A model generated the notes under the pieces. It was not told where the DNA came from. It did not search any database and was given only the letters and a program-made list of their open reading frames with translations. From contig NZ_JACHNU010000001.1 of the NCBI RefSeq assembly GCF_014199525.1, forward strand, positions 1,342,182 through 1,406,181: a DNA stretch of 64,000 nt. The letters run 5' to 3'. Positions 29,528-36,239 of this stretch are shown one piece after another (position 1 is the stretch's first letter; every line of letters begins with the position of its first letter). Position numbers and translations under genes: made by a program. Source of the stretch: Conexibacter arvalis (GTDB lineage: Bacteria; Actinomycetota; Thermoleophilia; Solirubrobacterales; Solirubrobacteraceae).

Positions 29528-29597
29528 GCCGCGCTCGCGCCGACGCGCCAATCACACCGGCTGTCAGCTCGCCGCGCAGATGGGTAGATTCCGGCAC

Positions 29598-30097
29598 ATG
29601 GCGCCGGAACGCGACCTCTTCGCGAACTTCGAGCGGATGCGGCGAGAGATGGACGAGCTGTTCGGAGACGTGCTCCAACGGCCGGGCATCGCGCCGCGCA
29701 AGCGCGGCGGCTTCTCGCCCGCGGTCGACGTCTACTACGCCGACGACCCGGCTCGTGCCGTCGTGACCGCCGAGCTGCCGGGGATCGACGCCGACAGACT
29801 GTCGCTGGAGATCCAGGGGCGCGAGCTGGTGCTCTCCGGCCACCGCCACCCGAACGAGGCCGAGGGCCGCGTCTACCAGCAGGTCGAGATCGAGCACGGC
29901 CCCTTCCGGCGCGTCGTGCAGCTCGGCGCCGAGGTGCGCGGCGAGGAGGCCAAGGCGATCTACGAGGACGGGCTGCTGCGCGTCGAGCTGCCGCTCGCGC
30001 AGCCCGAGCCGCGGCGCCGCAGCGTCCCGATCGAGGTGCCACACCCCTCGTCGAAGCCGACCCCGCGCCGCGGCCCCGATCCGGACGGCGGCTCGGC

Positions 30098-30101
<4 letters not shown>
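29598..30101 (+). CDS. Hsp20/alpha-crystallin small heat-shock protein
   Basis: 167 residues. Alpha-crystallin domain from ~residue 37 to ~130 (SPAVDVYYADDPARAVVTAELPGIDADRL...LVLSGHR...GPFRRVVQL...AIYEDGLLRVELPL), followed by a Pro/Arg tail. It holds unfolding proteins. ATG 29598 lies 7 nt after TAGATT (29585-29590), predicting a one-base leader. Its stop overlaps the lon start (ATGA), so chaperone and protease are made from one message. No CIRCE or HAIR element is visible upstream. Confidence 0.93.
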
Positions 30102-32518
<2,417 letters not shown>

Positions 32519-33993: not shown

Positions 33994-35370
33994 CTACGAC
34001 GCGGGAGCGAGCTTCGGGCTGGTCCAGGGCGCCGCGAGGCGGCGCTCCAGCTCCGGCGCCAGCTCGTCGATCGCGATCCGCACCTGCTCGAGCGTGTCGC
34101 GGTCGCGCAGCGTGACGGTGCGGTCCTCGAGCGTCTGGTGGTCGACCGTCACGCCCCACGGCGTGCCGATCTCGTCCTGGCGGCGGTAGCGCTTGCCGAT
34201 CGAGCCGCCCTCGTCGTACTCGGCCTGCATCCGCCGGCGGAGGTCGTCGAAGATCTCTCTGGCGACCTCGGGGTGGCCGGCCTTCTTCAGCAGCGGCATC
34301 ACCGCGACCTTGACCGGCGCGAGCTTCGGGTGCAGCCGCAGGACCGTGCGCGTCTCGCCCTCGACCTCCTCCTCGTCGTAGGCGTCGACGAGGAAGGCGA
34401 GCGTCGCGCGGTCGGCGCCGGCGGCCGGCTCGATCACGTGCGGCGTGTAGCGCTCGCCCGTGCCCGGGTCGAGGTACTCGAGCTTCTCGCCGGAGGCGTT
34501 TCTGTGCGCCGTCAGGTCGTAGTCGCCGCGGTTCGCTATCCCCTCCAGCTCCGACCAGCCGATCGGGAAGAGGTACTCGACGTCGCTCGTGCCGGAGGAG
34601 TAGTGCGACAGCTCGTCCTGCTCGTGGGGGCGCAGCCGCAGGTGGTCGGGCCGGATGCCGAGGTCGGTGTACCAGCGCTCGCGGGCGGCGAGCCAGTGGG
34701 CGAACCAGCGGTCGGCCTCGGCCGGCGGGACGAAGAACTCCATCTCCATCTGCTCGAACTCGCGCGTGCGGAAGATGAAGTTGCCGGGCGTGATCTCGTT
34801 GCGGAACGACTTGCCGATCTGCGCGATCCCGAACGGCGGCTTTCTGCGCGCGAACTGGAGCACGTTCTTGAAGTTGATGAAGATGCCCTGGGCCGTCTCG
34901 GGGCGCAGGTAGACGGTCGAGCCGGCCTCTCTGACGGGGCCGACGGTCGTCTCGAACATCAGGTTGAAGGCGCGCGGCTCGCTCAGCTCGCCGCCGCAGG
35001 TCGGACAGCGCACGAGCGCCGGGTCCTCGCCGTTCTCGACGGCGGCCTCCTGCAGGTGGTCGAGCCGCCACCGTCTCTTGCACTCGCCGAGGCACTGGAC
35101 GAGCGGGTCGCTGAAGCCGGCGAGGTGGCCGCTCGCCTCCCACACGCGGGGGCTCTGGATGATCGCCGAGTCGATCGCGACGACGTCGTCGCGCTCCTGC
35201 AGCATCGAGCGCCACCACTCGTTCTTGACGTTCGTCTTGAGCAGCACGCCGTAGTGGCCGAAGTCGTAGGTCGACCCGACTCCGCCGTAGATCTCGGAGG
35301 AGGGGAAGATGAAGCCGCGCCGCTTGCAGAGCGCGACGATCTTGTCCATGGTCACGATGTCGCTCGTCAT
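33994..35370 (-). CDS. glyS: Glycyl-tRNA synthetase, homodimeric type
   Basis: 458 residues. Class II synthetase: N-terminal YGGVGSTYDFGHYGVLLKTNVK, a CPTCGGELSEPR zinc-like insertion, motif 2 GKSFRNEITPGNFIFRTREFEQMEMEFF, the GIANRGDYDLTAH stretch, and a C-terminal anticodon-binding domain (LAPVKVAVMPLLKK...). ATG 35370 is chosen because TAGCAT (35386 to 35381) lies 10 nt upstream, implying a 4-nt leader. An ORF extension to 35475 would run through the CIRCE element and is not credible. No T-box leader can fit. Confidence 0.95.
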   Translation of the reverse strand: MTSDIVTMDKIVALCKRRGFIFPSSEIYGGVGSTYDFGHYGVLLKTNVKNEWWRSMLQERDDVVAIDSAIIQSPRVWEASGHLAGFSDPLVQCLGECKRRWRLDHLQEAAVENGEDPALVRCPTCGGELSEPRAFNLMFETTVGPVREAGSTVYLRPETAQGIFINFKNVLQFARRKPPFGIAQIGKSFRNEITPGNFIFRTREFEQMEMEFFVPPAEADRWFAHWLAARERWYTDLGIRPDHLRLRPHEQDELSHYSSGTSDVEYLFPIGWSELEGIANRGDYDLTAHRNASGEKLEYLDPGTGERYTPHVIEPAAGADRATLAFLVDAYDEEEVEGETRTVLRLHPKLAPVKVAVMPLLKKAGHPEVAREIFDDLRRRMQAEYDEGGSIGKRYRRQDEIGTPWGVTVDHQTLEDRTVTLRDRDTLEQVRIAIDELAPELERRLAAPWTSPKLAPAS

Positions 35371-35421: not shown

Positions 35422-35448
35422 TTGGCACTCTCGCGCCGAGAGTGCCAA
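35422..35448 (+). promoter_or_regulatory. CIRCE element (HrcA operator)
   Basis: Perfect 9-9-9 inverted repeat: TTGGCACTC (35422-35430), 9-nt spacer, GAGTGCCAA (35440-35448). It matches the CIRCE consensus TTAGCACTC-N9-GAGTGCTAA except for one symmetric change that is common in Actinobacteria. It lies just upstream of the TATACT -10 (35458-35463) of the FmdB-like gene and 48-74 bp upstream of the predicted glyS start point. Confidence 0.9.
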
Positions 35449-35473
35449 GCAACTGCCTATACTCTCCCGGACC

Positions 35474-35815
35474 ATGCCGATCTACGAGTACCGCTGCGAG
35501 AACGGACACACCTTCGAGACGCTTCAGCGGATGGTTGACGACCCGCTCGACGCGTGCGAGATCTGCGACGCGCCCGCCCAGCGCGTCCTTCACGCTCCCG
35601 CGGTTCACTTCAAGGGCTCTGGCTTCTATAACACCGACTACGGCACGAAGAAGCGTGCCCGTGAGCTGAAGAGCGCGGGTGAGGGCAAGAGCGGCAGCGA
35701 TGGCACGAGCAGCGACAGCAAGAGCAACGGCGACGGCAAGCCGTCCTCCGACGGCGCCTCGGCCGCCAAGAGCGGCGGCGACACCGCCGCCAAGAGCGGC
35801 ACGGCGTCGTCGTAG
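35474..35815 (+). CDS. FmdB-family zinc-ribbon protein under CIRCE control
   Basis: 113 residues. N-terminal MPIYEYRCENGHTFE followed by CEICDAPAQRVLHAP: a zinc ribbon in which the usual second Cys is replaced by His (C-x3-H...C-x2-C). The last ~55 residues are a low-complexity Ser/Gly/Lys/Asp tail. TATACT (35458-35463) lies 10 nt before ATG 35474, so the leader is about four bases, and the CIRCE element overlaps the promoter. This makes it a probable heat-shock protein. The family's molecular role is poorly known. Confidence 0.85.
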   Translation: MPIYEYRCENGHTFETLQRMVDDPLDACEICDAPAQRVLHAPAVHFKGSGFYNTDYGTKKRARELKSAGEGKSGSDGTSSDSKSNGDGKPSSDGASAAKSGGDTAAKSGTASS

Positions 35816-35819
35816 CGCC

Positions 35820-36239
35820 GTGCGCGCGGCGGCGCTGACCGCCGCGCTCGCCGTGCTGGCCCCGGCCGCGCCCGCGGCCGCCGCCGACCGCTTCGCCGGC
35901 CAGGTCACCGACGCGCTGCGCACGCCGGTCAGAAAGCTCGCCGCCGGCCCCTCGGGCCGCGCCGTCGCCGACCTGGTCTTCCTCGACCGCGAGCGCGCCG
36001 GCACCACCTACCGCACCTGCGTCGTGCGGCGGGCCGCGCGCGGCGCGAGAGGCGCGAGAGACGCCCGCGGGATCCGCGGCGCCCGCGGCGCGAGAGCGGT
36101 CAGGACCTGCTTCAAGGCGACCAGCGGGGCGGCCGGCGCGGCGACCGTCACGCCGCTGCGCTTCAAGCGCGGCCGCTACGTCGTCCGCTGGATGGTCGCC
36201 GGCGAGGTCGTCGCCCGCTGGCGGTTCGCCGTCGTCTGA
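35820..36239 (+). CDS. Small secreted protein of unknown function
   Basis: 139 residues from GTG 35820, four bases after the fmdB stop, so likely in the same heat-shock transcript. Signal peptide (AAALTAALAVLAPAAPAAAA, cleavage near ADRF). The mature part has one basic Arg/Gly/Ala-rich insertion (residues ~70-95) between two cysteines (CVV... and CFK...), then beta-strand-like LRFKRGRYVVRWMVAGEVVARWRF. It looks like a small extracellular beta-sandwich with one disulfide. No family recognised. Confidence 0.6.
   Translation: MRAAALTAALAVLAPAAPAAAADRFAGQVTDALRTPVRKLAAGPSGRAVADLVFLDRERAGTTYRTCVVRRAARGARGARDARGIRGARGARAVRTCFKATSGAAGAATVTPLRFKRGRYVVRWMVAGEVVARWRFAVV

What the first reader, a model, noticed from the sequence alone, without database searches (positions are those of the whole stretch)
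35422..35476. CIRCE operator controlling an FmdB zinc-ribbon protein
A perfect CIRCE-type repeat (35422-35448) sits directly upstream of the -10 of a 113-residue FmdB-like gene and a following secreted protein. HrcA/CIRCE normally governs groESL and dnaK. Placing a small zinc ribbon under it suggests a heat-shock role for this poorly understood family. It is also near glyS, which starts divergently.
Basis: partly seen in the sequence, partly recalled or inferred. Interest (0 to 1): 0.58.

Follow-up and report, generated by a model that had tools for sequence, protein, structure and literature searches.

The report
Heat-shock switch on Ruc-like chaperone gene
This actinobacterium carries the heat-shock repressor's DNA switch in front of a small zinc-ribbon gene whose relative in the tuberculosis bacterium is a known stress chaperone, so the switch is real and its meaning largely known, but relatives of this bacterium show two unexpected variations of it.

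Summary
TTGGCACTC-N9-GAGTGCCAA at 35422-35448 is a CIRCE operator, one of only three in the genome; the other two precede groES. hrcA is present. The operator overlaps the -35 position of a near-leaderless promoter (-10 TATACT, start codon 10 nt on) of a 113-residue FmdB-family gene.

The heat-shock idea is supported but not new: M. tuberculosis Rv0991c (Ruc), a zinc ribbon with a disordered tail, is HrcA-repressed, heat-induced and an oxidation-activated holdase (PMC7448276). The window protein is Ruc-like, but its ribbon has three Cys plus a His, so Ruc's four-Cys feature is not met.

Beyond that: (1) in the window's family 47 of 101 genomes with a ruc-like gene have CIRCE at it. (2) It sits in two registers: as in the window (32 genomes), or compact (15), with the -10 box inside the operator spacer and the operator running into the ATG. 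All 27 strict compact sites in 399 class genomes are at ruc starts. (3) 56 of the 101 genomes encode a ribbon without Cys; M. tuberculosis Cys-to-Ser mutants are constitutively active, so these may be switched by transcription alone. No expression or binding data were available.

The parts
35422..35448 (.). CIRCE operator, TTGGCACTC-N9-GAGTGCCAA (register I)
   Evidence: shuffles 0; genome control 0; same register in 32 of 101 family genomes with a ruc-like gene
35436..35441 (+). -35 position (CCGAGA, weak), inside the operator; TTGAGA at this place in 10 of 32 register-I relatives
   Evidence: no consensus promoter
35458..35463 (+). -10 box TATACT, 10 nt before the start codon; transcript predicted to be nearly leaderless
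35474..35815 (+). ruc-like FmdB-family gene, 113 aa: ribbon with C8, H12, C28, C31, then FKGSGF motif and hydrophilic tail
35820..36239 (+). small gene with signal-peptide-like start (GTG), 139 aa, probably co-transcribed; found only in this genus among the family loci searched
33994..35370 (-). glyS, glycine--tRNA ligase, divergent neighbour; 51 bp lie between its start and the operator

Best explanation
HrcA binds the CIRCE at 35422-35448 at normal temperature and covers the -35 side of the promoter, keeping the ruc-like gene and its small partner off. When heat or misfolded protein takes HrcA out of action, groESL and this gene are released together. The product is a Ruc-like holdase: a small zinc ribbon with a long disordered tail that holds unfolded proteins for the folding machines and is probably activated when the metal site is lost. 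Shown here: the operator, the hrcA gene, the groES sites, the conserved promoter layout, family membership and the tail. Inferred: HrcA binding, heat induction, metal binding by C8/H12/C28/C31, chaperone activity and its redox control.
For: Operator beyond chance; hrcA present; other two sites before groES; operator at ruc in 6 of 6 ruc-bearing genomes of the genus and 47 of 101 of the family; constant 9-10 nt from -10 to ATG in most; the operator stays with ruc where glyS lies 1.3 kb away; M. tuberculosis Ruc is HrcA-repressed, heat-induced and a chaperone (PMC7448276).
Against: 53 of 101 family genomes have a ruc-like gene without CIRCE although hrcA is nearly universal. The strict CIRCE-FmdB pattern is in only 26 of 399 class and 11 of 296 phylum genomes. 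The -35 is weak. Ruc's four-Cys feature is not met (three Cys and a His), so the redox switch may differ. No expression or binding data.
Confidence: 0.75

Rival explanations
1. The operator serves the divergent glyS, or both genes, and the ruc-like gene is a bystander.
For: glyS is the divergent neighbour in most family loci, and its start is 51 bp from the operator.
Against: In genus g9, where glyS could be placed, it lies about 1.35 kb upstream, yet the operator is 37-45 nt before ruc. Register II fuses the operator to the ruc start codon. Named relatives of other orders have CIRCE at ruc-like genes. Family genomes without CIRCE often keep the same glyS-ruc pair.
Confidence: 0.06
2. The gene is HrcA-controlled, but the protein is not a Ruc-like holdase: it does some other zinc-ribbon job, for example binding nucleic acid or another protein.
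For: The ligand set differs from Ruc (C8, H12, C28, C31); the nearest solved folds include RbpA, an RNA polymerase-binding ribbon, but with no E-value under 0.001; more than half of the family's genomes have no ribbon Cys.
Against: Same family model, same FKGxGF motif and hydrophilic tail, same regulator as Ruc (PMC7448276), and a mycobacterial relative with CIRCE and the same motif (L079).
Confidence: 0.2
3. The repeat is a chance palindrome or a relic that HrcA no longer uses.
For: 53 of 101 family genomes have a ruc-like gene without CIRCE.
Against: Perfect match, shuffles 0, genome-wide control 0, 6 of 6 in the genus. In the 104 genes the scores have two peaks: 45 genes with 0-2 mismatches, one with 4, 58 with 6-9.
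Confidence: 0.03

Closest known systems
M. tuberculosis Rv0991c (Ruc), HrcA-repressed redox-regulated chaperone (PMC7448276)
   Same: FmdB-type ribbon at the N-terminus, disordered hydrophilic tail, HrcA operator overlapping the promoter
   Different: Ruc has four zinc Cys; here three Cys and a His. Ruc also has SigH control and is followed by Rv0990c; here a genus-specific secreted-type gene follows, and SigH control was not tested
HrcA/CIRCE regulon (groESL, dnaK)
   Same: operator sequence, 9-bp spacer, hrcA present, two further sites before groES
   Different: target is a ruc-like gene; only three sites in the genome
FmdB of the amidase (FmdA) neighbourhood
   Same: same Pfam family Zn_ribbon_8; this genome has one beside an FmdA/AmdA gene
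   Different: that paralogue has four Cys, no FKGxGF motif and no CIRCE; the window's gene is the other branch

Membership tests
HrcA/CIRCE regulon | TTAGCACTC-N9-GAGTGCTAA-type inverted repeat | tested here: met
   2 symmetric differences from consensus
HrcA/CIRCE regulon | hrcA in the genome | tested here: met
   E 7.4e-43
HrcA/CIRCE regulon | operator at a promoter | tested here: met
   operator next to a -10 at a conserved distance from the start codon
HrcA/CIRCE regulon | HrcA binding and heat induction | not testable with these tools
   needs footprint and expression data
FmdB family (Zn_ribbon_8, TIGR02605) | score above the curated cut-off | tested here: met
   50.8 bits against 34.4; 56.8 against 31.3
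Ruc | four zinc-coordinating Cys in the N-terminal ribbon | tested here: not met
   C8, C28, C31 and H12 in place of the second Cys
Ruc | hydrophilic C-terminal tail without predicted structure | tested here: met
   (low pLDDT from about residue 50; one short predicted helix at 58-67)
Ruc | HrcA operator at the gene | tested here: met
Ruc | oxidation-activated holdase activity | not testable with these tools
   needs purified protein

The most novel reading that the evidence does not exclude
In this order of actinobacteria the control of Ruc-like chaperones has shifted from the protein to the gene. Many members have lost every ribbon Cys and should be permanently active holdases, so their activity would be set by transcription alone. 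In one form this is done with an ultra-compact switch in which a single 27-bp CIRCE contains the -10 box and ends in the start codon. The window's own gene (three Cys and a His, operator over the -35) would be an intermediate design.
Probability: 0.3. Interest if true: 0.62.

Novelty: new variant of a known kind. Interest (0 to 1): 0.42.

Why it matters
It ties the widespread label 'FmdB family zinc ribbon' to the Ruc chaperone branch and to the heat-shock regulon beyond mycobacteria. No held paper has 'FmdB' together with 'CIRCE', or with both 'HrcA' and 'regulon'. The Cys-free natural relatives allow a clean test of whether zinc and redox gating are needed for Ruc function at all, or only set when it is active. 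The compact operator is a small, testable model of repression by covering the -10 of a near-leaderless gene.

Tried and rejected
glyS as target: rejected as the main reading because CIRCE follows ruc, not glyS.

HspR/HAIR control: the best matches in the genome have 2 mismatches and are no more than the backward control, 2 against 2.

A link between Cys loss and CIRCE, which would have supported the novel case: not found. CIRCE (2 mismatches or fewer) is at ruc in 29 of 56 Cys-free genomes, 18 of 41 with three or more ribbon Cys, and 0 of 4 with one Cys.

Several independent gains of the operator: the glyS tree, of 69 of the 101 genomes, needs 12 changes for three states (I, II, none), and registers I and II need 3 changes each against each other; but well-supported branches force only one, so the number of origins is open.

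My first upstream scan stopped at the start codon and missed the compact operators; one search corrected it. A plain sigma-70 scan found no promoter. PDB sequence matches are weak, and the fold search gave nothing under E 0.001.

Rows dropped before counts: of 134 distinct CIRCE-plus-start hits, 11 failed the FKGxGF test: 5 are cut by the end of the stretch held (L025/L136, L042, L078, L088, L116), 1 looks frame-shifted (L058), 1 has a variant motif (L123), and 4 (L050, L085, L124, L132) are not FmdB. In one search no gene was read from 3 of the loci (L254, L258, L259).

Full report
WHAT IS THERE. The repeat at 35422-35448 is a CIRCE operator: one match with up to 3 mismatches in the 64-kb window and none in 100 shuffles. 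The whole genome (5.2 Mb, 99% complete) has three sites, with 0 for the backward pattern. The other two lie in tandem, 72 bp apart, before groES; I read the GroES start by eye. hrcA is present. Downstream of the operator come TATACT (35458-35463) and an ATG at 35474, 10 nt on, without an evident ribosome-binding site. The gene encodes 113 aa and belongs to Zn_ribbon_8 / FmdB. A structure model gives a confident ribbon (residues 1-40, pLDDT about 94) and a low-confidence tail. A small gene with a signal-peptide-like start follows 4 bp downstream. It lies next to ruc in 6 of 6 ruc-bearing genomes of the genus, within about 50 bp, and was found in none of the other family loci searched.

WHICH BRANCH OF FmdB. 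The genome has two TIGR02605 matches. The other one lies beside an FmdA/AmdA amidase gene, the classic FmdB setting (recalled); it lacks the FKGxGF motif and has no CIRCE. The window's gene carries HFKGSGFYNTDYG after the ribbon; F46, K47, G48, G50 and F51 are invariant in 32 CIRCE-linked proteins.

WHAT IS KNOWN. I read the abstract, sections 6, 8, 9, 10 and 13 and search passages of PMC7448276. M. tuberculosis Rv0991c, named Ruc, is directly repressed by HrcA, rises strongly at 45 C, binds one zinc with four Cys, is disordered, prevents luciferase aggregation when oxidised, needs its tail for that, and promotes refolding by the Hsp70 system. Paired Cys-to-Ser mutants lose zinc and are active even when reduced. 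Ruc homologues are reported from many bacterial lineages and near chaperone genes. The main text uses neither 'FmdB' nor 'CIRCE'.

SPREAD OF THE ARRANGEMENT. A pattern joining CIRCE to an FmdB start hits 26 of 399 genomes of the class, backward control 0; a similar one hits 11 of 296 genomes sampled across the phylum, control 0. Together with the loci, 134 distinct hits remained, 123 of them with the FKGxGF motif. Of the 97 of these counted by record title, 77 are Actinomycetota, 8 Chloroflexota, 2 Vulcanimicrobiota, 2 Myxococcota, one each Rifleibacteriota, Ignavibacteriota, Deinococcota, Acidobacteriota and Pseudomonadota, and 3 unassigned. Some titles look wrong: the Vibrio cholerae record carries a protein like those of the Arthrobacter records. 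A Conexibacter record (L044) and genome G407 of the window's genus share the same 118-aa protein over the stretch printed, so the window is probably Conexibacter (inference).

TWO REGISTERS. In the window's family a ruc-like gene was found in 101 of 111 genomes. I read 111 such genes from these 101 genomes. By genome, 32 have the operator as in the window (register I: starts 50-72 nt before the ATG), 15 have it 25-26 nt before the ATG (register II), one has a decayed copy in the register-II place (4 mismatches), and 53 have none. In register II the 9-bp spacer holds the -10 box (TATACT or TATAAT), and the right arm ends in the start codon (GAGTGCCAATG or GAGTGCCATG in most). A class-wide scan for this form gave 27 matches in 27 of 399 genomes, control 0: 12 in the family, and 15 of the 26 genomes (my count of the listing) of a second family of the order. 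All 27 lie at a ruc start (three of them read by eye). In register I the operator covers the -35 position in 26 of 32 genomes, with TTGAGA in 10 of 32; the 6 exceptions are all in genus g9, where the operator lies further upstream. Both designs should block RNA polymerase, at different parts of the promoter (inference). Genus g3 holds both. hrcA was found in 108 of 111 family genomes and a strict CIRCE anywhere in 98 of 111 (where one genome also has a control hit), so a ruc without CIRCE does not mean a genome without HrcA.

CYSTEINES. The window's ribbon has C8, H12, C28 and C31. In the family, 56 of 101 genomes have a ruc-like ribbon without Cys, 41 have three or four, and 4 have one (per genome, the gene with the best operator). 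Typical Cys-free ribbons read YEYRRPDGTTF...DPETG where the ligands were, while FKGxGF stays. By NCBIfam, 3 of the 4 Cys-free proteins tested still score as FmdB family; L071 does not. Cys-free forms with CIRCE also occur under other actinobacterial titles and in one Deinococci-titled record. A Cys-free ribbon is predicted with the same fold at similar confidence, but 7 of the 17 rows of that alignment have Cys, so this is weak evidence. On the M. tuberculosis mutant data such proteins would be constitutively active; that is inference. Cys loss and CIRCE are not associated (29 of 56 against 18 of 41).

MECHANISM AND LIMITS. Most likely HrcA represses the promoter by occlusion and heat releases it together with groESL; the protein then acts as a Ruc-like holdase. 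The regulatory half is well supported by sequence. The protein's activity is inferred from one studied relative, and the ligand change means that its redox behaviour may differ. The literature searches cover only the held open-access library. In PMC545781 and PMC4245973 I saw search passages only; those passages place CIRCE upstream of promoters, or at 45-99 nt before the start, and show no operator fused to a start codon.

Noticed in passing
window 29580-32518: An hsp20 gene directly followed by lon, about 3-6 kb from the operator; no CIRCE there and no convincing HAIR site in the genome.
   Followed up: partly
L219, L230, L245, L246, L251, L252: Tandem pairs of ruc-like genes in genus g9: the first copy has the CIRCE, the second has none of its own.
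   Followed up: partly
L006:79-1812: Second FmdB paralogue of this genome, beside an FmdA/AmdA amidase gene, with four Cys but no FKGxGF motif.
   Followed up: yes
window 35474-35599: The closest solved folds to the ribbon include RbpA, an RNA polymerase-binding zinc ribbon of actinobacteria, but no match has an E-value under 0.001.
   Followed up: no
L039, L094, L126: Record titles (Bifidobacterium breve, Vibrio cholerae) look wrong for the ruc-like proteins found there.
   Followed up: no
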